This document shows positions 23,501 to 56,516 of a stretch of 64,000 nucleotides of DNA, one piece after another. This DNA comes from Verpa conica (lineage: Eukaryota; Ascomycota; Pezizomycetes; Pezizales; Morchellaceae), in the NCBI GenBank assembly GCA_033030425.1, contig JAUFSD010000015.1, positions 1,426,001-1,490,000 on the forward strand, read 5' to 3'. Positions within the stretch are counted from its first letter, which is position 1. Each line of letters begins with the position of its first letter. Position numbers and translations under genes: made by a program. Under the pieces are notes generated by a model. The model made no database searches and was not told the DNA's origin. It was given only the letters and a program-made list of their open reading frames with translations.

Positions 23501-24225
23501 TGGAAACAAATCTAACCGTTGTCTCCAGCGAATAGAGCCTGTTTGTTTAGCGCCACCATTCTCCCTATAGTACTTATCTAGGTATCACAAGTACGCCTCG
23601 CTAATCCGCTTTTTGTCGTCTACTACATGGGAGAAATCAGGCCATCTAGATCTTGGTAGTGGAGTATCCACATAGTGTATCACCCGCTCCCTCAAGACCG
23701 GAGCTGAGGATGCTGTCGTACAGCCCCTTGCATCGGGGCGTTTCTCAGCCATCGAGTGATGGATGGTGAATCAACCTGTACTACGATCCGGGAAAACTCA
23801 CGATTTCTTTACTTGATATAGCGATTAAGCCATTCTAATAGAATAGATAGATTGTGGAGAGTAAAGGGTAACAATAGGCTACTTTGTTAATGGGATTAGT
23901 GGTTGGGGCTGGTTACTTTAGTAGGTAGAAGAGGGGATAGCGTACGAACCGATGGGGTTATGGGATTTGCAAACGGAATCAGCTCCTTAAACTGCTGGTA
24001 GATTTCCTATTCTGGGTGTAGAGAATTAATTGTGTGAGTGGGGCTGAAGACCGGACTAAATTTTGAGGACATTTTTTTTGAAGCTGATAGAAAATTGGGT
24101 AGAGTGGGGTGTCTTGCTGCAGGTACCTAGACCCACAGGGCGGTGATGGTGGGACGGACTGCTCTACAGTCAGGTAATCATCAGAATGACACCTTCACGG
24201 TAGTGAGCCAGGCAGAAACGAAAGT

Positions 24226-24232
24226 TATAAAA
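24226..24232 (+). promoter_or_regulatory. TATA box of the lectin-like gene
   Basis: TATAAAA lies 136 bp before the chosen ATG at 24362. It is followed by a CT- and A-rich leader typical of well-expressed fungal genes. This supports starting translation at 24362 rather than at the in-frame ATG 24146, which is upstream of the TATA box. Confidence 0.55.
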
Positions 24233-24361
24233 CCAGGCGCAATCCCCCACCATCCTCAATCATCATCCAACAGCAATTCCAATCACTTCCCAACCAAAGC
24301 AATCATTCCTCTCCAAGCTTTTAGCTTCAAAAACTACTTTCGAACTTTCAACAGTCCAACA

Positions 24362-25570
24362 ATGTCTTCTTCTCCCACTCGTCCCTCAAGCAGTGCTGGC
24401 AACAACGAAAAGCAAAAAAATGGCAAGCCTACCCTAGTTCGCAAAGGGACCGTCTCGCCCCCGCCCCCCTTCAGCAGTTCTCGCCTTGGGGAAGATGGAC
24501 GTCATCCCGGGCAAAAACCTCCTCCTCAGTCTCACAGTGCACTGCCTGCACCTAAGACCGAGAATCTCAATGGGTCGGGTAGCAATGGGGCAACGAGCAA
24601 TGGCACCAGTAACGGCAGCGTTGGCGCAGATAAAAACGGAATAAATGCCACAGCATCTCACATAAACGAACACGGAGAAGACATCTTCCACCCAACAATC
24701 CACCCAGAGCCCGAATGCACATTCGAAGTCCTCCCAGGCGCTAAAGTCTTCTTCACCGGTTACTCAAACGGATTATACACGCAGCGCATCACCCTCTTTT
24801 GCAATGGCAAAGACCTCGGGGTCTTTGAGGGTAGTGGAGAAAATAAGCCCATGAAGGTCATTGAGAGGCACCAGCCGTCAGGAGGGGTAAAACAAGAGGT
24901 AGCGGAGAGTCCAGAAGTCCTCGCACTTCCAATCTCTCTCAATATTCGTAATTTCAAAGCCCGATTTGAGTACAAAACAAGCGAGAACACGAGCTACATA
25001 GCCTCCAAGACGCTAACTCAAGTCAACATTGGAAAACACGATATCATTGAAACAATTTCCATCAACTCTGTAGAGGGTTCTGGAAATGATTTCTGTGATT
25101 CCCAGTTGAAGTGCGATATAATGTTTCCTGACCTCAACAACCCAACCAGAATTCTCATCCCCAAAAAGCATGCTGTTTCAATCAGTGCCATGGCGAACGC
25201 ATCCTTCGAACAGAATCTTGTATTCAGGATTGATAACGAACCGCTACAGACATTTTCTGGGAGAGGCGAGAATCAACCAATGTTGTTGGACGGCAAAAAG
25301 CTTCTCACCCTCGACCCGCACAATGAGGACCGCTGGCTTACGGGTATCTTCTTGTTTATCGACGGGAATAAGACGCGGACACTTGCAAGGGTTAATAAAC
25401 AGCTCCTTGTCACCGACCACAGTGAATTCAGGTCTGTTACTGTTAGTAGCGAGGATAGTAGCAAGGCTTGTGGGATGAAGGACAAGAACGACACTGTTCT
25501 CAGGGTTGTCGCTATCCGTAGCCCTGTTTACCACGACCTTGACGACCTAGATATCCGACCCCATTGTTGA
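24362..25570 (+). CDS. protein with two tandem LecB/PA-IIL-like lectin domains
   Basis: 402 residues, no intron. Residues 1-110 are low-complexity (Ser, Asn, Gly, Pro). Two similar domains follow, about 125-256 and 268-398. Both contain a paired motif: VFFTGYSNGLYTQRITLFCN..F.GSGENKPM in the first and VSISAMANASFEQNLVFRID..F.GRGENQPM in the second. Each ends in a strand like the calcium loop of bacterial LecB-type lectins (SEDGTDNDYND): NSVEGSGNDFCD in domain 1, VSSEDSSK then DKND in domain 2. Domain 2 keeps the E, D, N and D ligand positions; domain 1 seems to lose some. If correct, it is a calcium-dependent sugar-binding protein. There is no signal peptide, so it is cytosolic or non-classically secreted. 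The family call is inferred by eye; an unrelated beta-sandwich is possible. Confidence 0.6.
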   Translation: MSSSPTRPSSSAGNNEKQKNGKPTLVRKGTVSPPPPFSSSRLGEDGRHPGQKPPPQSHSALPAPKTENLNGSGSNGATSNGTSNGSVGADKNGINATASHINEHGEDIFHPTIHPEPECTFEVLPGAKVFFTGYSNGLYTQRITLFCNGKDLGVFEGSGENKPMKVIERHQPSGGVKQEVAESPEVLALPISLNIRNFKARFEYKTSENTSYIASKTLTQVNIGKHDIIETISINSVEGSGNDFCDSQLKCDIMFPDLNNPTRILIPKKHAVSISAMANASFEQNLVFRIDNEPLQTFSGRGENQPMLLDGKKLLTLDPHNEDRWLTGIFLFIDGNKTRTLARVNKQLLVTDHSEFRSVTVSSEDSSKACGMKDKNDTVLRVVAIRSPVYHDLDDLDIRPHC

Positions 25571-26921: not shown

Positions 26922-27839
26922 TCAACCACCTGCTTTCTTGGCAAGGTGAACCAAAGCAGCCACAACACCCACTGGAGCACTAACCAGTGCAGCCGGAGCC
27001 AAAACAATAGGAGCAACAACAGCAAGACCAAGTTTTTCAGCAAAAGAGAGCTCCGTAGGCTTCGAGAGTTTATCTATAATTGACTGTAGAGTGCCCTTCT
27101 CACCAGACTTCGCAAGCTCTCGGATACCCTCGGGTATCAATATACTCCCCACAGTTGTTTGCTCAACTGAATGGGGAGGCCGAAGCATTTCCTTTTGCCC
27201 AAGTAGGAGAATAGGGGGTCTTGCTAAAAGATCGGTGATGATACCCTTTGCTGCATCCTTGTCTTCGTAGAATAGTCGAGTAGTTTTGTAGATGCTGCCC
27301 CAGTGCTCGGTTTGTATATTCTTTTCCCTCTTCTCTTCATTCTTGAATCTGGGTTGGGTACCGGGGCTCCACATCGTTGTTCCGATAATGACACTTCCCA
27401 TATTTTCCTCCCCAACAATCGATTGGAGAATTGAGAAGGTTTTCTTCTGGCTTCCAGAGTACCTAACCTCGCTAATGTCGTGGAGGAAGATTACGCCGTG
27501 GATCTTGAGTTTCCGGGTCGCAAATCCGTAGAGCCGAGACATGATATCGTATACGAGAGTTAGATTTTCTTCGGCAGAGTCATCAAAGCCGGGAGTGTCC
27601 AAAAGGGCAATTTGCTTGTCCCCTATCATTGCTATATAAATGATGGGTTTGCGTGTACCTTTGTTTCTTTTGTTTAGCTGCCTAGAGAAATTGATATGGG
27701 GAATATGTAGTGGCCTACATGAGCTGATTCCATCGCTAACAGCTGGTTCTTTGCCGGTAATCATCTCCCTTCCACCAAGCAACTTTATAAAGCTACTTTT
27801 CCCAGCCCCGGTCTTCCCCATAAGAATAAACACGGCCAT
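26922..27839 (-). CDS. AIG1/septin-like P-loop GTPase
   Basis: 305 residues in one frame, starting at ATG 27839. The N-terminus carries the Walker A/G1 loop MGKTGAGKSSFIKLLGG (GKTGAGKSS, residues 8-16), followed by the G3 motif LLDTPGFDDS (about 79-88) and a strand-turn VIIGTTMW around 150 at the G4 position. The last 45 residues are alanine- and valine-rich (LGLAVVAPIVLAPAALVSAPVGVVAALV), probably a membrane-associating segment. This is the common fungal family of small, often lineage-expanded GTPases related to AIG1/GIMAP and Toc GTPases. Roles in immunity-like or stress responses are proposed elsewhere but not shown here. No partner gene is adjacent. Confidence 0.85.
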   Translation of the reverse strand: MAVFILMGKTGAGKSSFIKLLGGREMITGKEPAVSDGISSCRPLHIPHINFSRQLNKRNKGTRKPIIYIAMIGDKQIALLDTPGFDDSAEENLTLVYDIMSRLYGFATRKLKIHGVIFLHDISEVRYSGSQKKTFSILQSIVGEENMGSVIIGTTMWSPGTQPRFKNEEKREKNIQTEHWGSIYKTTRLFYEDKDAAKGIITDLLARPPILLLGQKEMLRPPHSVEQTTVGSILIPEGIRELAKSGEKGTLQSIIDKLSKPTELSFAEKLGLAVVAPIVLAPAALVSAPVGVVAALVHLAKKAGG

Positions 27840-29770
27840 ATCCTGTAGGGGGTCTACTCCATCGGCTGAAATGAATGCTAATAATTAGCCAGTGCCGAGT
27901 AGATACTCTTGGAGATAGCGGGCATCGAAGGAATAATCTTGACGGGGAGGTTGATATTTCTTACCGGAGCTTGGAGCCTGGCTACCCATCGACCTCATAA
28001 TTTTGACTCTTGCGGCGAGATTGGGAATTCTGAAATAGCACGAGAAATTATTTTAGGGAGTATTTTTAGGACGTGTGTAAGACGAGAATGGATTTGTATG
28101 GTGAATGCACTAGTTAGAGAGTTTGGGATCGCAGTGATATGAGAAGTCGGAGGCTGAGTGCTACCTTTATAGATGCTACTGAGCTTGTACCATAAACAAT
28201 ACCATAGAAAATATAGGATAACAAACGGTAGCTATTAAGCCTCTCATACCCAATAATTAGAGCCTTGGAGCGGGGAGTGTTGAATCTAGTAATCTGATAG
28301 GCTTTGTATGAGTCTAGGCAGCTACCAAAGAGACATAGGTTGCCTGAAGCTACTACAGAAACGGCCGGAGGCTGGGTTTAGGCAACCAACCCCCCCCCCC
28401 GCCCAGATATTTACCGTCACCTACAACCTCCAGCAACCTATTGCGAAAACGGGGATTAGTGAACAAGATTCTGCGGCCACCAGAGCCTCCGCCGATGACA
28501 TCAAAAGGCCGATCAAAGCCCTAATTAGAGCGCTTTGACACCATTTCTACGGAGGACTACACATCTTATGAGAGGCGTCGGCACAGTAGCCTACTCGTAA
28601 TCTCCTTGACTAGGTATTACACTCATTTATTCGTCAATACCTTATGTCGATGCTTTCCTACAATATTATCATTCACAGCCTCATGCCAAGCCTTTGATTA
28701 GCCTTGGCGCCAAAAAGCACCTCCGCAATAAGAGCCGCATCGTATTGAATTTAACCCTTACATCTTACATTCACAAGTCAACCATTTATTGGGTTACGTG
28801 ACCCAGATATGATTAGAGCTTTCTATACTTCTCTTTGCCCTTGGCATTCTGTGTCATCCGTTTGCATCTTAGATATATGTAACTACGCTCGTGCTGACAG
28901 CAGATACCGAAACGCATAGACTTGTTCCCTCCTTTGGCGAGTACTTGTAGTAGGTATGGAGCCATTAAAATACAAGGCCTAGGGGGAAGCATATTTCGGG
29001 GAAACTCCTATTAGGAAAGCTCCCATAAAGCATTACGCTCGGGAATGTAGTTGTCTTAGTAATGTTTCAATTCAGCACAAACGCGCCTTACCACAAATCA
29101 ATAGAATCTTTGATCATCTGGGAGCCTGGTAGCCTAGATTCATTCTCTACTCAGGGCTATGTTTTTTGGCAGCTTCACCACACGCGCTCCATTTGTGTAC
29201 CTCCAACCTCCTTTGATTGAAGGGTGATCGCTTAAACTCCTAGACTGGTAGAAGCACTCAGATTGTCCTAGGACTCTGATGTGTTGGTGCAAACATCAAG
29301 GGGCACGCGAGGGGTGGAAGGGGTGGGCGGTGTTGGGTTTTGAATGTGGGTAAGGTTTAGACGATCTATTCTCCAATAAGGCACCGAGTAATCTAGATAC
29401 TATCTACGAATAAATTCATTACCAGCGGTGAACTCAATTTAACACACTTCAGTACTGTGATGCTCTATACCTCCGCATGTGAGGGCGGCCCTACGATGTC
29501 GGATTACCCTTTCAGCCCCACATGAGTTAGTCCACGGGATGGTGTTTAGTATAATCCCGAAGAAAGCTTTAGTTTTATTTATTAAATTAAAGAACAATCT
29601 ATCTAGCCAGTGTGTATTGTTGAACAGTATGGTTTTATTCATATACTTGAGAGCTATTTTATCGAAATCATATGACGGGCCGACACCCCCGTTTCATAGG
29701 CAGCACTTTGCTCACGAATTACAGACCACTCTTAAATGACCTGAACCCTTATGTAGGGATAACAGGCCAA
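27840..29770. other. intergenic spacer
   Basis: Upstream flank of the GTPase gene and downstream flank of the F-box-like gene. It contains a C11 homopolymer at about 28390. I find no supported gene or repeat family. Confidence 0.5.
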
Positions 29771-35943: not shown

Positions 35944-38358
35944 TCACTCCACCTTAGCTCCCAACCGCCTATAAAACTCTGCACATCCCGCACTTCTTCC
36001 CAAAAACGCCCTCAATAACTCCATACCTCCTTGTGTCCCCCCTGCCTCTAGCACTATCTTCCTCCACCTCCGCCCCGCCTCCCCCCACTTCCTTTCCTTC
36101 CCCTGCCACCCGCCATCCTTCCCTGCCTGGTCAGCTTGTTGGAACACCTCCCACACATCTGCCGCGTAGCAGCTACTCAAAATATAGCCATAATACCCAG
36201 CATCATACCCCATTTCCAGGTGTCCGAACGTCGCATACCCGTCCATTCTTTCCTCTGCCCCTAACACTGGAATGATTTCCTTTCTTAGTTGGTTGTATAA
36301 ATTACCCACATCTTCTATGTGCGAAGAAGAATGAACCGCCATATCAAAACTCGCAATATGCACCCCTCTTAATGTTGATAAGGCGGCGCCATCAAATCTC
36401 GCTTTTACAAGTGTATTAGCACTCTCCCGATCAGCACCGAGCTCGTGTAAAACGTCAACATCCCAAGCAAACTCCTCTCCCACTCGGCTTGGGACCTCCG
36501 CAAAATCGACTGGGACACCGGCAGGTCCGTGGTACCGTGCATATTTTGTTTCCGAAGATAAATCATGTACTGCATGGCCGAGTTCATGGAACAGCACCAC
36601 CAGTTCTGCATGACTCAGCACCCCAGAGGAGGGGAAGTCTGTTAGGACGGCAGTGGAGGGGTAGTGCCGGCGAGCTTGCGAGTCATCTGTAGAAGAGGCA
36701 GGAGAGGTACCCCCCCGCCGGGGAGGAAGGTCATACCCTGGTGAGACGTTGAGATTCCCGGCCTGTGCAGTCTTCCCAGCCCGCGCGAGAAGGTCAAGGT
36801 AGAGATACCCTACGAACTTTCCTCCTTCCCCACTGTTCTGCTTATCCAAATTCCAGACTGCATATAACTGTACGCTTTCGTGCCATGCCATCTTCTTCTC
36901 TTCATCTGCACCCCCAATCTCATCGCCGTTGCGTACTTCATCCCACGCCGACTCATGCCCCTTCTCCTGTACAACCTCGTCAGCGCTTCGAAGTTCATCC
37001 CACGCTGATTTATGTACCCCCTCCTCCTGTACAATCTCGTCAGCGCTTCGGAGTTCATCCCAAGGCGACTTTGTAGAAAAGACACCCAGCATCTCCTCCC
37101 AATCTTTCTTTGACACGCGCACAAATTCTAACCCAAAAACATTCCCCATAATTCCCAACACTTTTGGTAGCGTGCTTTCTAGTTTAAAGCCCAACTCCCC
37201 TCCCGGCCGCGAGTGCAATAGATGGTCTACATATTTCTTATCCCACAGGTGGTACCCCTCCTCCACCTCTCCTAGCTGCTCTCCTCGCTGGGCCTCGTCC
37301 TGCTCCTTCACCTGTTGTCGCTCTGCCACCTCTTGTTTGGCCACAGACCAAACCCCCTCTCTGACCTCCTCTAGAAAGGATCCTACGAATCCCACATCCG
37401 GCACCATCCTCCCCTCCACTCTGAACTCTGCCCAGCTCTCATACCCAAGCAGCCTGGCCACCTCGGCACGCAGCGTGATCAGGTCCGCAAATACCGGTGC
37501 ATTCGCCGGACAGCGGTTCTCATTCGCGATAAAAACCTTCCTCCTTGTGGTGGGGTTGAGGGCAGATGAGAGCACCGTGGTGACAGCAGCGGGCTTCAGC
37601 GGTAGCACTAGCATCTGCTCCCCACTCACTTGCATCTCGGGGTCCGGGGCCAGGGTGGACAGAAACTCGGCGGGGACTCCAGAGAGTTCAGACCGAGAGA
37701 GAGAAAGCGTGGCATTGATACTGATGAGGTTTGCCTGAAACCTCCCGCGTAGTACCTCCATATCTCCCAGCAGTACTTGCAGCCGCTGCTGCTGCACGAG
37801 GGGGAGTGTGAGGCCATCATGGAGGGTGGCGGTGTACCAGGATGTAAGATAGCGTGTGGATTCGGTGTCTATGGAGTGGGTAGAGTTGTAAGGGATGAGA
37901 GCGGTGAGAAGGGGAGGGAGGGATGGATGTGTTGATGCGGTGAGAGTGTGGTTGTTCAGTGCGGCCAAGAGGGATGCGGTGGTGTCTGAAGGGGAGACAA
38001 GAGAGAGGATAGTAAGTGTGTTGATGAGTGTTGTGAGGACTGCTTCGGATGCGGCGAGCGGGGAGAGGACGGTGTTGAATGTTGCATCTTGAGGGGTGAG
38101 GGTGGAGAGGCGGGATAAAAGGCCTGAAGATGAGGCTATGGCGGCGTGAATAGTGGAGGGAGGGGGTGGGAAGGAGGGGGGCGGCTGGGGAGGAGTGCGG
38201 CGATGGGTTAGGGTTTCAAGATTCGAGTTGTGGTGTGGGGCCCCCGAGGGAATGGGAGGGGAGGGTACAGAGAGTAAGAGAGACGTGGTCCAGAAGGTCA
38301 GGAGCAGAATAGCGACCAGGCTGAGGGTGGGGATGAGAAAAGGGGGAAGGCGTGACAT
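35944..38358 (-). CDS. M3 family zinc metallopeptidase (thimet oligopeptidase-like), membrane-anchored
   Basis: 804 residues in one frame. Cleaves short oligopeptides using zinc bound by HExxH and a downstream Glu. The motif FHELGHAVHDL is at about residue 590, and the third ligand sits in DFAEVPSRVGEEFAWD downstream; the C-terminal GYDAGYYGYILSSCYAADVWE is typical of M3 enzymes. The N-terminus (residues 7-30) is a hydrophobic signal anchor, so this member probably faces the secretory lumen or exterior, unlike cytosolic saccharolysin. It is about 100 residues longer than usual. An acidic insertion near residues 425-490 contains three tandem copies of S(P/A)WDE(L/V)R..DE. It is divergent from the ABC transporter with 574 bp between starts, so they may share a promoter region. 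Confidence 0.9.
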   Translation of the reverse strand: MSRLPPFLIPTLSLVAILLLTFWTTSLLLSVPSPPIPSGAPHHNSNLETLTHRRTPPQPPPSFPPPPSTIHAAIASSSGLLSRLSTLTPQDATFNTVLSPLAASEAVLTTLINTLTILSLVSPSDTTASLLAALNNHTLTASTHPSLPPLLTALIPYNSTHSIDTESTRYLTSWYTATLHDGLTLPLVQQQRLQVLLGDMEVLRGRFQANLISINATLSLSRSELSGVPAEFLSTLAPDPEMQVSGEQMLVLPLKPAAVTTVLSSALNPTTRRKVFIANENRCPANAPVFADLITLRAEVARLLGYESWAEFRVEGRMVPDVGFVGSFLEEVREGVWSVAKQEVAERQQVKEQDEAQRGEQLGEVEEGYHLWDKKYVDHLLHSRPGGELGFKLESTLPKVLGIMGNVFGLEFVRVSKKDWEEMLGVFSTKSPWDELRSADEIVQEEGVHKSAWDELRSADEVVQEKGHESAWDEVRNGDEIGGADEEKKMAWHESVQLYAVWNLDKQNSGEGGKFVGYLYLDLLARAGKTAQAGNLNVSPGYDLPPRRGGTSPASSTDDSQARRHYPSTAVLTDFPSSGVLSHAELVVLFHELGHAVHDLSSETKYARYHGPAGVPVDFAEVPSRVGEEFAWDVDVLHELGADRESANTLVKARFDGAALSTLRGVHIASFDMAVHSSSHIEDVGNLYNQLRKEIIPVLGAEERMDGYATFGHLEMGYDAGYYGYILSSCYAADVWEVFQQADQAGKDGGWQGKERKWGEAGRRWRKIVLEAGGTQGGMELLRAFLGRSAGCAEFYRRLGAKVE

Positions 38359-38932
38359 GTTGGATATAGCCCGACCGAGGCAGATTGATTTGGAGCTCCA
38401 TGGCGACGATGGGGTTTATTTCAAGTGTAGTTGCAGAGGAGCTGTGAATAGGGCGTAGTCTGGCCAGCCAGTCAATAACACGACAGAGAATGGTGTAGTC
38501 CGGGGGTGGGGGCAGGAGGGAGGGAGGGTAGGGTGCAGACAGGGGGAGTAGAACAGGATAGACATAATCCGGGATTCAGACACAGGATGTGACAGGGGAT
38601 ATAACATAAGACTTACCAGAAAGATACCCCTGACTGACTGTGTTCAACGGTCTGCAGATGAATCAATCTGCCGGCAGAAGGAGGGGCATCTCCCCTAGAA
38701 TAGCACCGTGGCTCGTGCGTAGAACCACCTTCCATTCCGATATGAGACAGCGAGATCAGCGGTGGCTTATGCGGGTGATTGCAGGGGAGAGTGGCAGTAC
38801 ATGGAAATGTACTGGCTGTCGGCTTATTATCTCTCCCTCGAATATCTACTTTATATATTTATATCTGCTTGATTCCTACCAGCTACCAGCTGTCTCCGTA
38901 GAAGAATAGACGGTTAATTCGAGTTGTTAATC

Positions 38933-41900
38933 ATGGACTGCCCTCCTAGTCTCGATGCCCTCTTTGGCCCCGCCGTCGCCCATTGCCGGCGCACTTTCGA
39001 CTTTACCCTCCTGTTTGAAGAAACAATCTTGACTATCGCCCCAGCAGTGCTGTTTATTATCCTCTGCCTTCCACGGCTATACACTCTACTCAGGCGTCAG
39101 CTGCTAACTCAAACCCACGGGTACCTTCACAAAGGAAAACTAGTCTGTCCCTCTCCCCTCTCCCCTCTCCCCGCTTCTCAACCGCCCCGCTGACATCACT
39201 GCAGATAACAACCTCTATATACGCCGCCCTCCAAGTGGCCTTTCTTGTGCTCACGTGCACTCGCCCCCATACCCGCACTTCTATCCCCGCCGCAACCCTA
39301 ACACTCTTATCTTCCCTGCTCATCCCCGCCCTATCACACCTTGAACATACCCGCTCCATCAGACCCTCTGCACTCTTATGTGTATATACCCTCCTCACAC
39401 TCCCATTTGATGGGGCCCGGACGCGCACACTCTGGTTATCTTTCTCTTCCTCTACCTCTAATATTCCCGCTATCTTGACGGCATCTCTCGGCGTAAAGCT
39501 ATTCCTCCTAACGCTTGAATGCGCCCCCAAACCTCGACCTCAGACCGCCGAGATCTCCCCCGAAAGCACCGCTGGTATCCTTGGGCAGTCCCTCCTACTA
39601 TGGCTCCTTCCACTGCTTCGAGCTGGCTATAAGCGCACCCTACAACTGTCGGATCTATATCCTATTCCCCCATCCTTACTCTCTTCTTCCCTATCTGTCC
39701 ACTTTCACAGCCACTGGAACCCTGAATCATCCTCCAAGCATGCGCTACTACTAACAACAGTCCTCTCTCTCCCCCGCCCCCTCCTAGCACCCATAATTCC
39801 CCGCCTAGCACTAATAGGTTTCACATTCACCCAGCCGTTCCTTGTCTCACGGGTATTGTCTTACCTTGCTGAAGACAATTTAGAGAATAGGAATGCAACG
39901 GGCTACAGTCTTATGGCTGCGTATGGGATTGTGTATACTGGGATAGCTGTAAGTCATCAACTTTCCTACTACTCCTTACCTCTAGTTTGTCCACTGCTCC
40001 GTCCCCCCTCCCACCCGTGGTGGAAAGCACGCAGTTCGAGTACTCCAAGTGATTCTCCGGGAGTCTGGGGTTTTAAGCTTCCGCGGTTGTTCGCTGGCCT
40101 TCGCTGACACCCACGATAGATATCAACTACCTTCTACAACCACCTCACATATCGGCTCCTCACGGCTGTGCGTGGGGGGCTTATTGCGACGATATATAAA
40201 CACACCTTGGTGTTCCCCTCTGTATCAGCGGGGATGTCTGCCAGTGTGACAAGCGATGAGGGAAATCAGGAGAAACCTACGACGCCTGCCTCCTCATCAA
40301 GCTCATTAGGCGAGCAGGAGAAGAAGAAAGCCTCCACTTCATCCTCGTCCTCGAGCACCCCAGACGCAGACTCAGCAGTCACTCTCATGTCTACCGACGT
40401 CGAACGCATCGTCTCAGGCCTAAAATTCCTCTACGAGCCATGTGCTAACGCAATCGAGTGTATTCTTGCCGTATATCTCCTCTCGCGCCAGGTTGGCGTC
40501 TCCGGTCTCGCTATGGTTGCGCTCGCGCTCGTGTGCGTTCTCATCACTGCTCGAGTCGCCGGCGTCGCGGGGGTGCGGCAGGGCGTGTGGATGGCCGCTA
40601 TACAGAAGCGGGTCGGGGCGACGGCGGGCGTACTTGGAGCGGTCAAAGGGGTGAAGATGATGGGGCTTGAGAACAAGGTCGGAGGGGTGCTGCAACAGCT
40701 TAGAGAGACGGAGGTGGAGCGGGCGGGGCTGTTTAGGCGGAGTATTGTATGGTCTATTGGGCTTTGTGAGTCTCCTGAGGGTAACCTAGTGGCTATATAG
40801 CTGACTTGGAGGGGATAGCGTATGCGACATTAATATTTAGCCCGCTCCTGGTATTCGCGGCGTTTACAGGCATTGCCGAGAGAAAGGGACAGACACTGGA
40901 TGTTGGTAGAATGTTTACGAGTCTTACGCTCATTTCGTTACTTGCGGCGCCGCTAGTACACCTATTTCAGGCGCTGCCGGCGTTGAGTGCTGCGGGGAAC
41001 TGTGCGGCGCGTATTCAGGCGTATTTGAGGGTGAGGGGAAGGGGAGAGGGGGGGGCACACCCCTGGGCCACAGACCCAGAGGGGGAGAGTATAAGGCCTG
41101 AGAATAAAATAGAGAGTGAGGCGATTGTGGTCTGTGGCGGTAGCTTCGGGTTCAGTTCAGATACCCCGCCTGTGGTCAAGGATGTTAACCTCAGTGTTAA
41201 GCGTGCGGAACTAGTCATGCTAATCGGCCCCGTTGGCTGCGGAAAAAGCACACTCCTCAAAGGGCTACTCGGGGAGGTAGTAGTGCTAGCGGGGACAGTA
41301 AGGGTAAGTGGTGGGGTCGCGTACTGTGATCAAACCGCGTGGCTAGTCAATGATACTGTACGTGCGAATATTATCGGCCCGGCGGAGTACGACGAAGGGT
41401 GGTATCGCAGTGTGACGAGAGCGTGTGTGCTAGACGGGGATATTGACAGACTGGCGAAGAGAGATGGGACAAAAGTTGGGAGTAAGGGCGTGGCACTTAG
41501 CGGTGGGCAGAAGCAGAGATTGGTGAGTTCGCGCCTGATGGAGCGGAGACGGGGGAGCTAATAACATTGGTAGGCACTAGCGCGGGCACTTTACGCGCGC
41601 AGGGAAATCGTAATCCTAGATGACATCTTCTCCGGGCTCGACCGCACGACTGTTGAATTGCTGTTTGGGCGCCTCTGGGGGACTGAGGGCCTGTTGCGCA
41701 AACTCAGGACGACAGTCATTTTCGCAACGCATGGTGGTAAGTCCTCCCCCTTCTTTAGAGCGCGTAGAGTGCGCTGACGCGCCTTGGGTAGTGGGCTACC
41801 TACAGTACGCGGACCGGGTTGTCGCACTAGGATCGGACGGTAGGGTTTTAGAGCAAGGGACGATAGCCGAGGTGCTGCTGGCAGATGGGTATATTAAGAG

Positions 41901-44101
41901 TCTGTGTGGCGCAAAGCAGGGTGTGAGTGCTGTGGATGATGAGCCGGCGGAAGAGAAGCCAGAGGTGCTATCGGAGAAACCTACGGAGGACAACGAGAAG
42001 GGGGAAAGGAAAACAAGGGATAGAGATGTTTATAGGTACTATTTTAAAGCGATTGGGAAGCTTAATACTGTCTGCTTTCTCGCTGGCGGGATATGTTTTG
42101 CGGTACTACTAAAGTTTCCAGGTTTGTCTTGTGCTGTGGCTCTCTTTCTTTCTTGGATTTTCTAACAATAATGACCTATAGACCAATGGTTGACATGGTG
42201 GTCGAATGCGAATACGACACATCCGAACCAGAGAATTGGGTATTATCTTGGAGTGTATGCGGGGTTTAATGTTTTGGCGTTTATTTCACTGTGTGCTTGG
42301 TCGTGGTCAGTACGCCGTACTATACACCTTGATCACCGTTAATTAGTGGGATAGGCATCTCTTCTACGGCGTTGTAGCGACGTCGGGGAAGAATCTGCAC
42401 CGAGAGCTATTAAAGACTGTGATGAGGTACTTTTAAGTCTAATATTGATCAGGTAGTGTGGTATTGACAGATATTCTAGTGCCCCGTTTCCGTATATAAG
42501 TCGTATCGATACAGGTGTTACGACCAATAGGTACTTGACTGTCTACATACTTTAGAGGAGGAAGCTAATGATTTCATAGGTTTAGTCAAGATATGTTATT
42601 GGTCGATGGGACATTGCCGTTATCATTATTGAACACGGCAGCAGGTATGCCTCTACGTCTTCCAGACCAAAGTACTAGCTAACTCTCGCGGCAGAGCTCT
42701 TCACATTTATCGTGCAGATCGGCCTCATCGCCGCCGCATCCCCCTTCATCCTTGCGTCATTCCCCTTCATCTTCGCTGTCGTCTATATAATCCAGCGCTT
42801 CTACCTCTGCACCTCCAAACAACTCCGCCTCATGGATATCGAAGCAAAAGCGCCTCTCTATGCTCACTTTATCGAGACTTCGAGTGGGCTGGCGCTCATC
42901 CGCGCCTACGGTTGGCAGCGCTATTTCACGGAGACTACATATCGTGTACTAGACGAGTCGCAGAAACCATTCTACCTGCTGTATTGTGTACAGGTTTGGT
43001 TGAATTTAGTGCTGGATTTGGTCGTAGCAGGGTTGGCAGTGGTGATAATTGGCATTGCGGTGGGGCGGCAGGGATTGTTGAGTACGAGTGCGATAGGTCT
43101 AGCGTTAGTGAATATCACGACACTAGGGGAGACACTAAAGAATTTAGTTATTTCTTATACGGGTTTAGAGACTAGTTTGGGGGCGATTGCGAGGTTAGAG
43201 TCATTTACGAGGGAGACGCCGAACGAGGATGCGGGGGATGAATATCATGAGGAGCCGCCGAATTGGCCCGGTAGTGGAGTTGTCGAGTTGAAGAATATTT
43301 CTGCAGCGTACAGGTCTGTTTTTATAGAACCTCAACTAAAGGGTGTTTTAGCTAACGTGACTTTGCGCTTCAGAGAAGAAGGAGCTCCAGTTTTGAAAAA
43401 CATCTCATTGAAAATTGAAGCCGGCCAGAAGGTGGCAGTTTGTGGTCGCAGCGGTAGCGGAAAAACCTCCCTCCTCACTGCCTTCTGCCGCATGCTCGAT
43501 CTCACATCCGGAGCGATTTACATCGACGGCATAGACCTTTCAACAATCCAGCGGCATTATGCGCGCTCACACCTTAACGTCGTCCCCCAGGATGCGTATG
43601 CTTTCCCCGGATCCGTCCGTGCGAACCTCGACCTCGCGGGCACCATCTCCGACGAGGAGCTAGTCAGAATACTAACACGGGTAGAGCTATGGGAGAAGAT
43701 AAAGGAACTCGGCGGATTAGATGCGGAGATGAACTTAGAGGAGTTGAGTGCGGGACAGAGACAGCTGGTCTGTCTTGCGAGAGCCATGGTTAAGAGGGGT
43801 AATGGGCGTATTTTGCTGCTGGATGAGGCGACAAGCAGGTTTGCTCTCTACCCCCCTTTTTTTATTATAAGAAATGGAAAATTAATGTAGAGATAGTGTT
43901 GATGTTGCTACGGAGAAGTTGATGCAGCGAATTATAGAGGAGGAGTTCAAAGACCATACAGTAATTGCTGTGTTGCATAGGCTAGCATCTGCATTGGAGT
44001 ATGAGAAAATTGTAGTTTTGGATAAGGGTGCACTGGTGAGCTTTGATACGCCTGAGAATTTGATGGAGAGCAATCCACTATTTAAGGGATTTAGAAAGTA
44101 G
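38933..44101 (+). CDS. ABCC-type (MRP-like) ABC transporter
   Basis: Full transporter with many introns, ATG at 38933, ending …PLFKGFRK then TAG at 44099-44101. An N-terminal hydrophobic region (38933-39950) precedes the first transmembrane domain (about 40150-41010). NBD1 has Walker A GPVGCGKSTLLKG (near 41227), signature LSGGQKQRL (near 41500, split by an intron) and Walker B IVILDDIFSGLD. The second membrane domain covers about 42180-43190 and includes NRFSQDMLLVDGTLP across an intron. NBD2 has Walker A GRSGSGKTSLL (near 43446), signature LSAGQRQLVCLARAM and Walker B ILLLDEATS, then an intron and the switch His in AVLHRL. The Asp (DD) instead of Glu after Walker B in NBD1 fits the degenerate ABCC site. 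Exports conjugates or xenobiotics; its substrate is unknown. A serine-rich insertion lies at about 40300-40370. Confidence 0.9.
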
Positions 44102-45345: not shown

Positions 45346-46400
45346 TCACGCGCGTTCGAAATCCGCCCACCAAACATCCATAGTCCTACACCTACTAACG
45401 TCCTTCTCCTTTACCTCTCCCTTATTTATATTTTCCAACTCTCTCATCGTTTGCTCCCTCAACTCCAAGACTTCTTGTTTAGCCTTCGCTTGGTCAGGCC
45501 GGCAGAGCACGCTATCAATCTCATCCGTATACTGAGGGTAGAAGCAAACCCAAGTAACCTCCCATTGACCATCCACAACCTCTTCTACGGGTGTCACCAT
45601 CCCCTGCATCTCCACTCCGTCTTCGGATGAGCGGAGCTTCCATCCTGCCTTCTTTGCTAACTCTTTTACCTGCTCCGGCGACGGTGCAGAGCGCACATTT
45701 GGCTCCGTCGCATCTCGCTGCTCGGGGGTTTTGTAGGAGTAAAAGAGCGCCTGACACTTTGCTGCCAATACATGTGGGATCTGTTCTGGCAGCGAGTGCG
45801 AGAAGCTATACTCAGCTACGCAAAGGCGCGGAGCAAAAGGAAGTATCGCGGAGAGGGATTCTAATATGCTCGCGTGGGAGGGGAAGTACCAGAGGCTGTG
45901 GGAGAGAATGATGAAGTCAAAGTGCTCGCCCGGAGGAAGGGCTGCGAGATAGGTTAATGGATTCTGGGCGTGGAATGAGATGCGGGGGCCAAGCGGGGAA
46001 GCAAGGATGTGCTCGCGGGCGGCGGAGACGGTAATCGGTTGGCCTGCGGGGATGAGTTTGAGCGCTAGTACCACGACAACAGGGAGCACTAACCATAGTC
46101 TAGGCGGGCGGGATCAACGCCGACCACTTTTCCTGTTGGGCCAACGATATGCGCAAGTACGAGCGTCGTTTCGCCCTACAATATCTTTGTTTAGTTAATT
46201 TATCCGGAGATAGTAGAAGAATACAGACTGACCTGACCACACCCGAGCTCGAGAACCCGCGATCCCGGGGGAATATTGAACCGTGAGACCAGCTCCAAGC
46301 GGTGGCGGAATTGAGGGATTACGTAGGTTTGAAGATGGGCAGGCTTGTGAAGGTAGCTGGAGGAGAGGAGGGAGATGGTTGCATCGTCGGTGGTCGCCAT
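45346..46400 (-). CDS. SAM-dependent methyltransferase
   Basis: Three exons, 46400-46233, 46175-46094 and 46043-45346, in phase, giving 315 residues. The glycine-rich SAM loop VLELGCGQGETTLVLA spans the first junction. The acidic end of strand 2 is GVDPARLDYG in exon 2. Exon 3 continues with HFDFIILSHSLWYFPS (motif for strand 4) and AEYSFSH (strand 5). The fold is class I; the acceptor substrate cannot be told. It lies between the ABCC and MFS transporters, so it could belong to a small-molecule or peptide pathway; dikaritin loci often include a methyltransferase. It is divergent from the MFS gene, with 622 bp between starts. Confidence 0.85.
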
Positions 46401-47022: not shown

Positions 47023-48882
47023 ATGGCAATCGACACGGCGCCCATCACTAGCAATAGTGAGATGCTCCCCCCGTTCGCTACAGCTACTGACCATGAGCAA
47101 AGATGGTTCATTCCAACCATCAAGTTCTTCAATACTCAACGAAACCGGATATTTAGTAGTGTTCAATTCTATGCTACACTACTATGCTTTGTAATTATTG
47201 TAACAGTAGATATGGCGGCATATCTGTCCTCAGCTCCTCAAGTCCGCCTATTCGAATCTATCATTTGCCTTGACTACTACCGGGTGAATGATCCAGAGCT
47301 TATTGATGGAAATGGAAACGTCCCAGAGCAGTATTGCAAGATCGATTCTATACAAAGCGAGATTGCGATGTTGAATGGATTGCAGACGCTGTTTTCAAAT
47401 ATTCCGGGTATTACAAATAAGAGAGAGAGATAATACGCATATGCTAATGGGTATGATTAGGTGTGGTACTCGCAGTACCATTCGGTGTTCTTGCCGACAG
47501 GTTTGGACGGAGGATTATTCTAGTTGTAACGATTTTAGGGCTCACGCTCTCTTCTGCCTGGGTACTCTTTGTTTGTACGGCCATTTTCCCTCGAGGTCGG
47601 CGACTGTACTGACCCGGAAATAGGCTGGTTTTCATTACCGATCAAACTTACATGGCTATCCTCAGCGTTTTATTTACTCGGGGGAGGGTCCTCGATGGGA
47701 TCAGCTCTAATTCTCATGATAATTGCGGATGTAACACCAGAGAGTCAAAGGTGAGTTTTGTCTCTAGTTATGGCACCACTAGCTATTGACTGGGGTACTT
47801 CAACCTCTAGGTCGACGGTATTCTTCCAGTTACAGGCTTGTGTGCTACTATCCGAGCTTGTAGCGCCGCTATTTGGCTCTGTACTCATGAATCGTAATGT
47901 CTGGATCCCGCTGCTTATTGGTCTCGGGGTTCAATCTTTGGGGATACCCATTGCTCTTGCTCTACCGGAGACAAAGGGTTCAGAAACAGGGAATATTGAA
48001 CCAGTAAATTCAACGACCGGAGATGGTAACGAAGGAGAGAACGATGATGAGGAAAGTACCAAAGAACTAAGCCCACGCGAAAGCAACTATCGAGAGGTGA
48101 TGCTCTTCCTACTCAAGGACATAAACGTGACTCTCTTGGTCTTTACGTTCCTTGTGGCTACGATAGGGCGGCAGGCACTGGAAATACTTTTACAGTATGT
48201 TTCAAAGAGATATGAATGGTCACTGTCCAGTGCAAGTTTCCCATATAATTCCGATAAGAAATCTCAAGTATTAACAAAAAGAATAATTTCCAGGCTAATT
48301 TTCTCTTCTCACTCCGGGCTGGTGTCAATCTGGTCCTCTTGTTAGTTATTTTACCAGCACTGGCTTCTGTGTTGATGAGCAGGTGGAAAATGAGTCCTGG
48401 TAAAAAGGATTTGTATATAGCACGCGCAAGTATAGTTCTCATGGCCATAGGCTTTTTGGCTATCGCTATCTCCCCAGCCCCCGTTCCAATGATGATTGGT
48501 AGGCCTCTCATTTCCATATTTTATTATATATATCAGAGACACTAACTCTTCAGGTCTCATGGTCTATACCTTCGGCTCTGGCTTCAGCGCGGCTGCCCGT
48601 AGTCTTGTCACCTCTATGGTTGACGGATCGAATATTGGGAAGCTATACACCAGTATCGCGCTATTTGATACATTAGGTGGGTTAGTTGCAGGTCCAGCTT
48701 TGTCGCTTACTTTCAGCTGGGGGATGAAACTCGGAGGCGGGTTAGTTGGGTTACCATTTTTGTTGTCCTCAATTCTGTTCGGGCTGGTCGCCGCTATCAT
48801 GTTTCTGGTGCGATTGCGAGCGCCAGTTGGCGAGAACCGGTATGAGCCATTAAATGGGGACGAGGAAGACGGGGAAATTTGA
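47023..48882 (+). CDS. MFS transporter
   Basis: Major facilitator protein, six exons read: 47023-47407, 47461-47574, 47624-47750, 47811 to about 48227, about 48291-48498, 48554-48882. The N-terminus is cytosolic, and the first helix is TLLCFVIIVTVDMAAYL. The loop RLFESIICLDYYR…EQYCKIDSIQSEIAMLNG and the motif A equivalent GVLADRFGRRI identify a fungus-specific MFS group. Helices continue through LPETKGSE, a long acidic central loop, and six C-terminal helices ending PLNGDEEDGEI. One junction (about 48228-48290) does not restore the frame with any GT/AG pair of normal size that I tried; either a non-obvious splice or a one-base disruption is present. Probable role: export of a metabolite. Confidence 0.82.
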
Positions 48883-52980: not shown

Positions 52981-54082
52981 TTAATTATGATGAGCATGTT
53001 CATCATGGCCACCGTGATCATGACTATCCCAACCCTCAATCCCAAACATTCTCTTAAATTCATCACTCATTCTAACCGGAGCTTGCTCCTCCGGCTTTCT
53101 CAACGTTTTGAATTTTTCGACATCAACTACATTCTCCCCCTGCCACTTTAGGATTGCATCAAAGTCCTTACACTTTCTGTTAATGCTGAAGTCTGGGAAG
53201 GGGTATGTCTGCCCCTCCACCCAAGCTTGTGTAACGATGTCGGTAGATGCTGTACACATCAAGTGTTGTAGAATGATGTAGAGACAGTGTGAGGTATGTA
53301 CTTTATGCAATTCGGGGAAAACACCATCGGGATACTTCTCCCGGAAATAGTATTCAAAATCGAGATCTCGCCGGATGGCATTGAGGCAGTGGATTTGGTG
53401 AAGGACATCGAGCTCAGCAATGTGCTTATCGGGGCCAAGGCCAAAGTCGTCAGGGTATCTTGCGGTACGAGAGGGATCTAATGAAGGGCTGAGATTAGGA
53501 CTAAGTTTGTAAATCTTCCGGCGAATGAGCTCACCTTTTCCAAGCTTGATCACATCCTCCGTAGTGATGTAGGTGGGGCGGAGGTCAGCAATACGGTTCC
53601 ATGCAGCGTCAACTTCAGGACTGGAAGGTGCGCGGAAGATGCTATGGTCCATATCGAGGAGTGAGCCATTAACTCTGACGTCCTTAAGCGGTATCTGAAC
53701 CCTGTCAAAAAGCGGAGCTGTTCATCATATCAGCATAGGTCGGGGTGTAGCTTGAAGAGAGACAGTTCTCACAATAATAACTTGTTTCCTTCAACAAGGA
53801 ATTGTTGACATTGTGACGCATGCGGAACGAATAGCTGTATGCCACTGAGAAGACAATTAAAGATATACAGAATAAAGCAATGTTGAGAAAAACTAAGATG
53901 CGGCCGCCTTTGCCATACACAATGCTAGAGCTGGTATGTTTCTCCTGGACAATAAACTCCTCAGAACTTGAATTCCGAGAGGATGAATCGCCAACAAGAG
54001 ACTCGCCAGACTCAGTGCCATCATCGTGGTAGGAAGGGCGTTTTTTGCTCATGGGGAGGTACCCTTTCTTCGTGAGAAACAT
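52981..54082 (-). CDS. UstYa-like (DUF3328) RiPP-modifying enzyme
   Basis: Two exons, 54082-53773 and 53717-52981 (intron of 55 nt, donor GTGAGA, acceptor AACAG), in phase, 348 residues. The N-terminus is a cytosolic Ser-rich tail, then one membrane helix (GRILVFLNIALFCISLIVF, about 63-85), so it is a type II membrane protein of the secretory pathway. The catalytic region contains the two DUF3328 signatures, HQIHCLNAIRRD and HTSHCLYIILQHLMC (both HxxHC, about residues 205 and 245), and the upstream block SLLDMDHSIFRAPSSPEVDAAW. In ustiloxin and related pathways UstYa-type proteins catalyse oxidative cyclisation of Kex2-released core peptides. The C-terminus has a His-rich tail (DSHDHGGHDEHAHHN). 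It is divergent from the repeat precursor gene, which makes it the probable modifying enzyme for that peptide. Confidence 0.92.
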
Positions 54083-55283
54083 GGTGAAATTCAAAGTGAG
54101 TATGGCTCCAAAACTCAGCAGCGTGGAGAAATGGAGAAATAGAAGAGATGGAGCGTCCTTCGAGGAAGATGAAGGCGTAAGAGGATTTCCAGCTTAGTAT
54201 ATTGTAGCACTTGACATCGTATGATAGGCGGTGAGAAACGCAGAAAGTATTTGATTATGCTGCAGAACAAGGGTTGACCCCAGGCCTGAATGAAGGAGGC
54301 TGTGAAGCACTGCCGGATGTAGGAGTGTAAATTACTCTGATGTTTGTATAGCCAATACCTATACGGGATAGTATGTTGCCACGGGAGGACCCGGGCTTAT
54401 TTCACCACATTTACTAATTCTACCACTCGAGCTCAGTGGCGATCGTTGAATCGACTAGGAATTGTGAGATAATCTCAGGCTCTTCTTACTTATACTCTCG
54501 GTACCTTAATTAGCCTCTGGCCTAAAAGTAAAAAGACGAAGGATAACGGTATATAGTTATTTTCGGGAGAGAAACCCAACTTGGAAAATGTCGATCTTTC
54601 GGTGAGTCTCGTGTTGACTATAACAGATGCGAAGTGATATTATAGTGTTTGTGCACAGTGCCGCTCCTACCCATTTGTAGCCCCTTGAAACGGGTATCAA
54701 GACTAAAGATATGTCCCAAATAACCTTCTTGGAAGGTTGGCTATCCTACATTCATGATGCTATCTCTATCCATTATAGAAATAGGTTCAGCCGTTGGCGC
54801 TTGAAGATGATTTTCCATTACGATTATTGGAGATAGTAATACAGCTTATTCTAGTTACTTGCATGGGACGGGAATTGGTCTGACAAATGACATCTGCTAG
54901 TAAGGGTATATTCTTGTAGAATCTCTAGTGAGTATCAGGTGTGCAGACTATTGCAGGGTATCGTCGCTCGAAACTCTAACAGACGACCATGCATCCCTTG
55001 TGAAATTTCCGGCTCCACCGGCATCGTTCCTATCAATGAGGGGCCGCGATACAGCGTTCCCCCGCACCAGATGAGCTAATGCAGTAGATGCGTTACTTGA
55101 TCAAGCTCTATCACACCCCGAGGTAGCACTGACCCCTCATCCTCCAAAGGCCATCTGCTCTATATAAGGCCTGCCCATTCCCTCCATTTCTCCTTCATCC
55201 AAAACAACATCCTTCACAGTCTCATACCATTCTCTACGCCTCTCCAAAGTACTTTCATCTTTCTATCATCTAAAATCACCACA
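54083..55283. promoter_or_regulatory. shared divergent promoter region, UstYa-like enzyme / repeat precursor
   Basis: A 1.2-kb region separates the two divergent starts. The precursor side has a clear TATA box (55161-55167) and a CT-rich leader. Co-regulation from a common upstream region is likely but not proven. I see no long palindromic operator. Confidence 0.5.
55161..55167 (+). promoter_or_regulatory. TATA box of the repeat precursor gene
   Basis: TATATAA lies 123 bp upstream of the ATG at 55284 and is followed by a pyrimidine-rich leader (CCATTTCTCCTTCATCC), typical of strongly transcribed fungal genes. Confidence 0.65.
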
Positions 55284-56516
55284 ATGCGTTATCAACTTTC
55301 CATCGTCTCCCTAGCACTTCTTGGCTCGCATGTTCTTGCTATGCCAGTGCCAGGTTCGTATTCCTTCGCCCTCGTGCCTTAGGATGTTCCTACTAACAGC
55401 GAAATAGAAACCCCGGAGAAGCGTGAAGCTGCTAAGGAGTACTTCCACGTTGCCAATGATGTTCTCGACAAACGCGACGCGGCCAAGGAATATTTCCATG
55501 TTGCCAATGATGTCCTCGACAAGCGGGAACCAGCCAAGGAGTATTTCCACGTTGCAAACGATATCCTCGACAAGCGGGAACCGGCGAAGGAGTACCTCCA
55601 TGTTGGAAACGATGTCCTCGACAAGCGTGCTAAGGAGTACCTCCATGTTGGGAACGATGTCCTCGACAAGCGTGAAGCGGCCAAGGAGTACCTCCATGTT
55701 GGGAACGATGTCCTCGACAAGCGTGAAGCGGCTAAGGAGTACCTCCATGTCGGAAATGATGTCCTAGACAAGCGTGCCAAGGAGTATCTCCATGTTGGAA
55801 ATGATGTCCTCGACAAGCGTGAAGCGGCCAAGGAATACCTCCATGTCGGAAACGATGTCCTAGACAAGCGTGCTAAGGAGTATCTCCATGTTGGAAATGA
55901 TGTCCTCGACAAGCGTGCTAAGGAGTATCTCCATGTTGGAAATGATGTCCTCGACAAGCGTGAAGCGGCCAAGGAGTACCTCCATGTCGGGAACGATGTC
56001 CTAGACAAGCGTGCTAAGGAGTACCTCCACGTTGGAAATGATGTCCTTGACAAGCGTGAAGCGGCCAAGGAATACCTCCATGTTGGAAATGATGTCCTCG
56101 ACAAGCGGGAACCGGCTAAGGAGTACCTACATGTTGGTAACGATGTCCTTGACAAGCGTGAGCCCGCCACCGAGTACTTCCATGTTGCCAATGATGTCCT
56201 CGACAAGCGGGAACCGGCCAAGGAGTACCTACATGTTGGAAACGATGTCCTTGATAAGCGTGAAGCGGCCAAGGAATACCTCCATGTCGGAAATGATGTC
56301 CTCGACAAGCGGGAACCGGCTAAGGAATACCTACATGTTGGTAACGATGTTCTTGACAAGCGTGAGCCCGCCACCGAGTACTTCCATGTTGCCAATGATG
56401 TTCTTGACAAGCGTGAGCCCGCTACCGAGTACTTCCACGTCGCCAATGACGTCCTCGACAAGCGTGAGCCCGCTACCGAGTATTTCCACGTTGCAAACGA
56501 CGTTCTTGATAAATAG
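55284..56516 (+). CDS. Kex2-processed repeat precursor, dikaritin-type RiPP
   Basis: Two exons, 55284-55353 and 55408-56516 (54-nt intron with TACTAAC), 392 residues. The downstream AG at 55406-55407 is required; the first AG gives an immediate stop. A signal peptide (MRYQLSIVSLALLGSHVLA) and short spacer (MPVPETPEKR) are followed by 22 tandem units, each ending LDKR except the last, which ends LDK-stop. Seventeen units are 17 residues (for example EPAKEYLHVGNDVLDKR) and five are 15 residues (AKEYLHVGNDVLDKR). Fifteen carry YLHVG and seven carry YFHVA. The KR pairs are Kex2 sites, so secretion would release about 21 near-identical 13-15-mers. Every core holds one Tyr, as in ustiloxin and phomopsin precursors, and a UstYa-like gene is adjacent. 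An alpha-pheromone precursor is less likely, since the units lack the Trp/Cys/Pro-Gly pheromone pattern. No product structure can be predicted from sequence. Confidence 0.93.
55420..56513 (+). repeat. 22-unit coding minisatellite (45/51 bp)
   Basis: Tandem 51-bp units with five 45-bp units interspersed (units 5, 8, 10, 11 and 13). Neighbouring units share synonymous variants (for example GTC CTA GAC AAG in units 7, 9 and 12), which shows duplication of blocks larger than one unit. Confidence 0.95.

What the first reader, a model, noticed from the sequence alone, without database searches (positions are those of the whole stretch)
52981..56516. Candidate dikaritin-type RiPP locus: 22-unit Kex2 repeat precursor divergent from a UstYa-like enzyme
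Seen: a signal peptide plus 22 KR-punctuated units with a YLHVGND or YFHVAND core, and a divergent DUF3328 gene with two HxxHC motifs 1.2 kb away. Known: ustiloxin, phomopsin, asperipin and epichloecyclin precursors share this layout, and UstY-type proteins cyclise the released cores. Inference: this locus makes a family of secreted, oxidatively cross-linked peptides with a core I do not recognise, in a probable Pezizomycete, where I know of no described product.
Basis: partly seen in the sequence, partly recalled or inferred. Interest (0 to 1): 0.95.

Follow-up and report, generated by a model that had tools for sequence, protein, structure and literature searches.

The report
Repeat peptide precursor beside UstYa gene
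A fungus apparently related to morels carries a gene for a secreted protein that would be cut into 22 near-identical short peptides, right beside a gene for the enzyme type that cross-links such peptides in known fungal toxins; it is a good but untested candidate for a new natural product of a known kind.

Summary
A 392-aa precursor (55284-56516, one intron) carries 22 Kex2-type units; a UstYa/DUF3328 gene (54082-52981, Pfam E=5e-51, two HxxHC motifs) starts 1.2 kb away, divergently. Added here: (1) it is the only PF11807 match found in the 45.8 Mb genome; (2) a hidden 57-nt stop-free intron gives a 329-aa enzyme; (3) the repeats are under purifying selection (14 of 14 third positions vary, 4 of 28 others; 10 spellings of YLHVGND); (4) 17 of 22 units carry an extra EA/EP/DA, a Ste13-type substrate, so trimming would leave only four 13-mers; (5) the enzyme's nearest relative is from Morchella importuna (79%); (6) the locus lies 14 kb from a telomere-like contig end. 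No precursor relative was found. An MFS transporter and a methyltransferase-like gene lie 4.1 and 6.6 kb away. Best reading: a minimal, asperipin-like dikaritin locus making oxidised Y-x-H-V-x-N-D peptides. Expression, cross-link and synteny are untested. The kind is known (DUF3328 genes near 1,758 of 7,878 published repeat precursors; a Fungal-RiPP cluster is already listed for one Pezizomycete); this member appears new.

The parts
55284..56516 (+). Kex2-processed repeat precursor gene, 392 aa; exons 55284-55353 and 55408-56516
   Evidence: splice sites and frame; 22 units
55284..55340 (+). signal-peptide-like N-terminus MRYQLSIVSLALLGSHVLA
   Evidence: inspection of the translation; no predictor run
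55425..56513 (+). 22 units: [EA/EP/DA]-A[K/T]EY-[LF]-HV-[GA]-ND-[VI]-LD-K(R); 17 carry the dipeptide, 5 do not
52981..54082 (-). UstYa/DUF3328 gene, 329 aa; exons 54082-53773, 53717-53535, 53477-52981; a single N-terminal membrane-spanning helix by inspection; HQIHC and HTSHC
   Evidence: Pfam PF11807 E=5.1e-51 (uncorrected form); second intron from homologues; both motifs invariant in 47 aligned rows
54083..55283 (.). 1.2-kb intergenic region between the two divergent start codons; TATATAAGG at about 55162
   Evidence: sequence; promoter role inferred
47023..48882 (+). MFS transporter gene, 526 aa, 5 introns (one GC-AG); possible cluster member
   Evidence: model; Pfam MFS_1 E=2.5e-21
45346..46400 (-). 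SAM-methyltransferase-like gene, 315 aa, 2 introns; possible cluster member
   Evidence: model; PDB 3bkx E=1.8e-15 on the 255-aa ORF; Pfam only below cut-off

Best explanation
A minimal dikaritin-type RiPP locus. The precursor enters the ER by its signal peptide. Kex2 cuts after each KR, a Kex1-type carboxypeptidase removes KR (K in the last unit), and a Ste13-type dipeptidyl peptidase removes EA/EP/DA, leaving 22 copies of four 13-mers: AKEYLHVGNDVLD (15), AKEYFHVANDVLD (2), AKEYFHVANDILD (1), ATEYFHVANDVLD (4). The membrane-anchored UstYa enzyme oxidises the peptide, most likely through the invariant Tyr, forming an ether to a side-chain carbon within Y-x-H-V. Peptidases and a transporter finish and export it. 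Shown here: gene structures, units, enzyme family and motifs, single match in the genome, coding selection. Inferred: processing order, oxidation, cross-link site, export.
For: 22 units with every third codon position variable and few others. UstYa domain E=5.1e-51, single match in the genome, 1.2 kb from the precursor; if a genome has about 5 such precursors, chance adjacency is about 5e-4 (rough). Both HxxHC motifs invariant in 47 aligned rows (46 of the 120 listed homologues plus the window protein); 118 of 120 listed homologues have both. All 22 cores contain Tyr, as do 65.6% of repeats in DUF3328-accompanied precursors against 38.2% in the rest (PMC7329392 section 7). Kex2-type and DPP-IV-type genes are present. 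Asperipin-2a has the same lone-UstY design (PMC6514808 passages).
Against: No transcript, mass or synteny evidence. No precursor relative found. No tyrosinase match on this contig (0 of 20), though asperipin-2a needs none among its four genes. No S41-type peptidase among the 19 window ORFs scanned. DUF3328 enzymes can hydroxylate or chlorinate and occur outside RiPP pathways. The Ste13 anatomy also suits linear pheromones.
Confidence: 0.72

Rival explanations
1. The precursor releases linear signalling peptides or a mating pheromone (alpha-factor-like: Kex2 plus Ste13 spacers), and the UstYa gene is an unrelated neighbour.
For: EA/EP/DA spacers in 17 of 22 units. A pattern for the WCxxxG[QE]xC pheromone core gave 14 scattered single hits (control 10), so no other pheromone gene of that type was recognised. 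78% of published repeat precursors have no DUF3328 neighbour.
Against: No MF_alpha family among 8 Pfam matches at E<=1. Published pheromone precursors lack a DUF3328 gene nearby in 227 of 227 (yeast alpha type) and 213 of 216 (fungal type) cases (PMC7329392 section 8). The genome's only UstYa match is the neighbour.
Confidence: 0.15
2. The enzyme acts on these peptides but by hydroxylation or halogenation, not by cyclisation.
For: DUF3328 proteins hydroxylate and chlorinate in cyclochlorotine clusters (PMC12048977 section 22).
Against: All 22 cores carry Tyr, and UstYa-type enzymes of repeat precursors described in the papers read cyclise through aromatic residues.
Confidence: 0.08
3. A decaying or silent subtelomeric locus with no product.
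For: 14.2 kb from a telomere-like contig end; no precursor relative found.
Against: Both reading frames and the splice sites placed are intact; unit differences are mostly synonymous; the enzyme keeps the invariant residues of the alignment.
Confidence: 0.05

Closest known systems
Asperipin-2a locus (aprA, aprY, aprT, aprR; Aspergillus flavus)
   Same: Repeat precursor, one UstYa homologue, a transporter, no tyrosinase among the four genes (PMC6514808 passages)
   Different: Core FYYTGY against YLHVGND/YFHVAND; no reductase recognised here among the ORFs scanned; membership of the transporter is unproven
Ustiloxin and phomopsin loci
   Same: Signal peptide, KR-bounded repeats, DUF3328 enzymes, acidic residue just before the core Tyr (EDYxI; PMC6339444 section 10)
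   Different: His instead of Ile two residues after Tyr; one DUF3328 gene instead of two or five; no tyrosinase on the contig
Yeast alpha-factor-type pheromone precursors
   Same: Signal peptide, Kex2 sites, X-Ala/X-Pro dipeptide spacers (spacer comparison recalled)
   Different: No MF_alpha match; adjacent UstYa gene, which is rare for pheromone precursors
UstYa homologue LAJ45_05170 of Morchella importuna
   Same: 79% identity to the corrected product, clade support 100/97
   Different: Its neighbouring genes could not be seen; no precursor is known to me for it

Membership tests
Dikaritin RiPP | DUF3328/UstYa class-defining enzyme | tested here: met
   PF11807 E=5.1e-51
Dikaritin RiPP | two HxxHC motifs in the enzyme | tested here: met
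   HQIHC 191, HTSHC 225; invariant in 47 rows
Dikaritin RiPP | precursor with highly repeated Kex2-bounded cores | tested here: met
   22 units, 21 ending in KR and the last in K
Dikaritin RiPP | signal peptide on the precursor | tested here: inconclusive
   N-terminus looks like one by inspection; no predictor available or run
Dikaritin RiPP | aromatic residue in the core to be cross-linked | tested here: met
   Tyr in 22 of 22 cores
Dikaritin RiPP | oxidatively cross-linked product | not testable with these tools
   needs mass spectrometry
Dikaritin RiPP | conserved pairing of precursor and enzyme in relatives | not testable with these tools
   no other fungal genome DNA held; no precursor relative found
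Ustiloxin/phomopsin subtype | EDYxI-type core | tested here: not met
   cores read [K/T]EYxHV
Ustiloxin/phomopsin subtype | tyrosinase in the cluster | tested here: not met
   0 of 20 tyrosinase matches on this contig
Alpha-factor-type mating pheromone | similarity to known pheromone precursors | tested here: not met
   no MF_alpha family among Pfam matches at E<=1; no relatives found

The most novel reading that the evidence does not exclude
The UstYa enzyme of this probable morel relative joins the invariant Tyr to the invariant His two residues on (Y-x-H, where ustiloxin and phomopsin have Ile), giving a dikaritin scaffold with a Tyr-His link in a class of fungi with no described dikaritin product that I could find.
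Probability: 0.15. Interest if true: 0.7.

Novelty: new member of a known kind. Interest (0 to 1): 0.45.

Why it matters
It gives a compact, testable RiPP candidate in the morel lineage: one enzyme and four predicted 13-mers of known mass. Because it is the only UstYa match found in the genome and sits beside a highly repeated precursor, it is a clean case for asking what a lone UstYa protein does to a Tyr-x-His core. Comparable pairs are already catalogued in large numbers in other ascomycetes, which limits the surprise.

Tried and rejected
Precursor relatives: (392 aa query, candidates of about 216-686 aa; 7,994 scored) gave none at E<=0.001. One search (194 aa query, about 107-340 aa; 7,997 scored) gave one at E<=10, P0121 (132 aa, E=8e-4), with LHVGKE repeats but no KR sites; rejected as chance. 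Second copies in the genome: one hit at E=1.25 besides the gene itself, rejected.

Pfam matches of the precursor to Mitofissin, T7-like_Y65, Mtd_N and others have no stretch that passes on its own; rejected as repeat artefacts.

Tree: 34 of the 120 listed homologues plus the window protein, midpoint root; it groups with Morchella next to Hortaea, Penicillium vulpinum, Colletotrichum, Beauveria and others, away from the Orbiliomycete rows. Horizontal transfer is not claimed.

Pheromone pattern scan: 14 scattered hits against 10 in the control; uninformative, and it does not remove the pheromone rival.

Papers: UstYa+Kex2+Pezizomycetes 0; dikaritin/UstY/DUF3328 16; Morchella+UstYa 0; HVGND/HVAND/Kex2 5, off-topic by their listing; Morchella+RiPP 11, one opened; Morchella/antiSMASH/fungal-RiPP 111, 15 listed. 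Open-access library only.

Full report
OBSERVATION. The precursor gene runs 55284-56516 (+) with one 54-nt intron (55354-55407) and encodes 392 aa: a signal-like N-terminus, then MPVPETPEKR, then 22 units. Fifteen units hold YLHVGND and seven YFHVAND; the L/G and F/A changes go together in 22 of 22. The UstYa gene runs 54082-52981 (-). Homologues read GKDPS where the genomic frame has a 19-residue insert, so I place a second intron at 53534-53478 (57 nt, stop-free, GTGAGC...TTAG); the product is then 329 aa with HQIHC and HTSHC. The Pfam score (E=5.1e-51) and the homologue search were run on the uncorrected 348-aa form.

REPEATS ARE SELECTED AS PROTEIN. Over the 14 codons compared in all 22 units, 14 of 14 third positions vary but only 4 of 28 first and second positions (P=6e-8 if columns were independent). 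pN is 0.044 and pS 0.587. Among the 15 YLHVGND units pN is 0 with 10 spellings of the seven codons; the seven YFHVAND units have pN 0.034, pS 0.697 and 6 spellings. Copying among units alone would not hold the protein fixed while synonymous sites differ.

PROCESSING ANATOMY. Seventeen units begin with a dipeptide (EA in 7, EP in 9, DA in 1) before A[K/T]EY; five begin with AKEY directly after KR. X-Ala and X-Pro are substrates of Ste13-type dipeptidyl peptidases, as in yeast alpha-factor (recalled), and the next pair, AK or AT, is not. Trimming would bring all units to A[K/T]EY. The last unit ends in K, which a carboxypeptidase could remove as well. The expected set is four 13-mers in the ratio 15:2:1:4. 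For ustiloxin, Kex2 products of 13-14 residues are proposed as the enzyme substrates (PMC6514808, passages). The genome holds a P-proprotein (Kex2-type) match on contig C12 and DPP-IV-type genes on C17 and C3.

THE ENZYME. It is the only PF11807 match found in the 45.8 Mb genome. The nearest relative is Morchella importuna LAJ45_05170 (75%; 79% with the corrected model); the next rows are at about 50% (Colletotrichum, Hortaea). Both HxxHC motifs are invariant in 47 aligned rows (46 of 120 listed homologues plus this protein). Of the 120 listed homologues (163 passed the threshold), 118 have both motifs and two, P0047 and P0115, have one. In a 35-row tree it pairs with Morchella at 100/97.

SURROUNDINGS. 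An intact MFS transporter gene (47023-48882) and a SAM-methyltransferase-like gene (46400-45346) lie 4.1 and 6.6 kb from the 3' end of the UstYa gene (methyltransferase by 3bkx, with Pfam only below cut-off). ABC-transporter ORFs (39019-43890) and an M3-peptidase ORF (35944-38415) lie further out. None of 20 tyrosinase matches in the genome is on this contig. The contig ends 14.2 kb beyond the precursor in irregular TTAGGG-like repeats, so the locus is probably subtelomeric. Whether the transporter and the methyltransferase belong to the cluster is open.

WHAT IT IS LIKE. Umemura 2020 (PMC7329392; abstract, sections 7 and 8 and passages seen) found DUF3328 genes among the 15 nearest genes for 1,758 of 7,878 Kex2-repeat precursors, most often at the neighbouring gene, with Tyr in 65.6% of those repeats against 38.2% in the rest; pheromone precursors almost never have one. 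This locus fits that published class. By gene content it is nearest to asperipin-2a: one UstY homologue, a transporter, no tyrosinase among its four genes. Ustiloxins and phomopsins share EDYxI (PMC6339444 section 10) and link the Tyr to the Ile (PMC9233826 section 9). Here the matching positions read [K/T]EYxH; if the enzyme keeps that spacing the partner would be His. That is conjecture.

LIMITS AND RESULTS AGAINST. There is no expression, mass or synteny evidence. No precursor relative was found, but each search covered only proteins of 0.55-1.75 times the query length and scored about 8,000 candidates. DUF3328 enzymes also hydroxylate and chlorinate and occur outside RiPP pathways (PMC12048977 section 22). 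The Ste13-like spacers and the lack of a recognised pheromone gene elsewhere keep the pheromone rival alive. The species is not identified; 'Pezizomycete, near Morchella' rests on one protein. A Fungal-RiPP cluster is already listed for Sphaerosporella brunnea (PMC10455484, passages), so a RiPP prediction in the class is not new.

VERDICT. A well-supported candidate dikaritin-type locus with an undescribed core: a new member of a known kind.

Noticed in passing
L024:6530-6738: The contig carrying the window ends in irregular TTAGGG/TTTAGGG-like repeats, a probable chromosome end, 14.2 kb beyond the precursor.
   Followed up: partly
48232-48293: The MFS gene appears to use a GC-AG intron (GCAAGT...TTCCAG).
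   Followed up: no
35944-43890: An M3-family peptidase ORF and ABC-transporter ORFs on opposite strands, in a GC-richer stretch (53-57% in 36-42 kb, 40-49% in the other 2-kb windows).
   Followed up: no
14594-16960: A 788-aa ORF made largely of ankyrin repeats (Ank_2 E=9.5e-119).
   Followed up: no
24131-25570: A 479-aa ORF with a weak match to the PA-IIL fucose-binding lectin family (E=2.1e-6, 28.4 bits, above Pfam's cut-off).
   Followed up: no
26922-27884: An ORF with a weak GTPase match (MMR_HSR1 E=4.9e-7).
   Followed up: no
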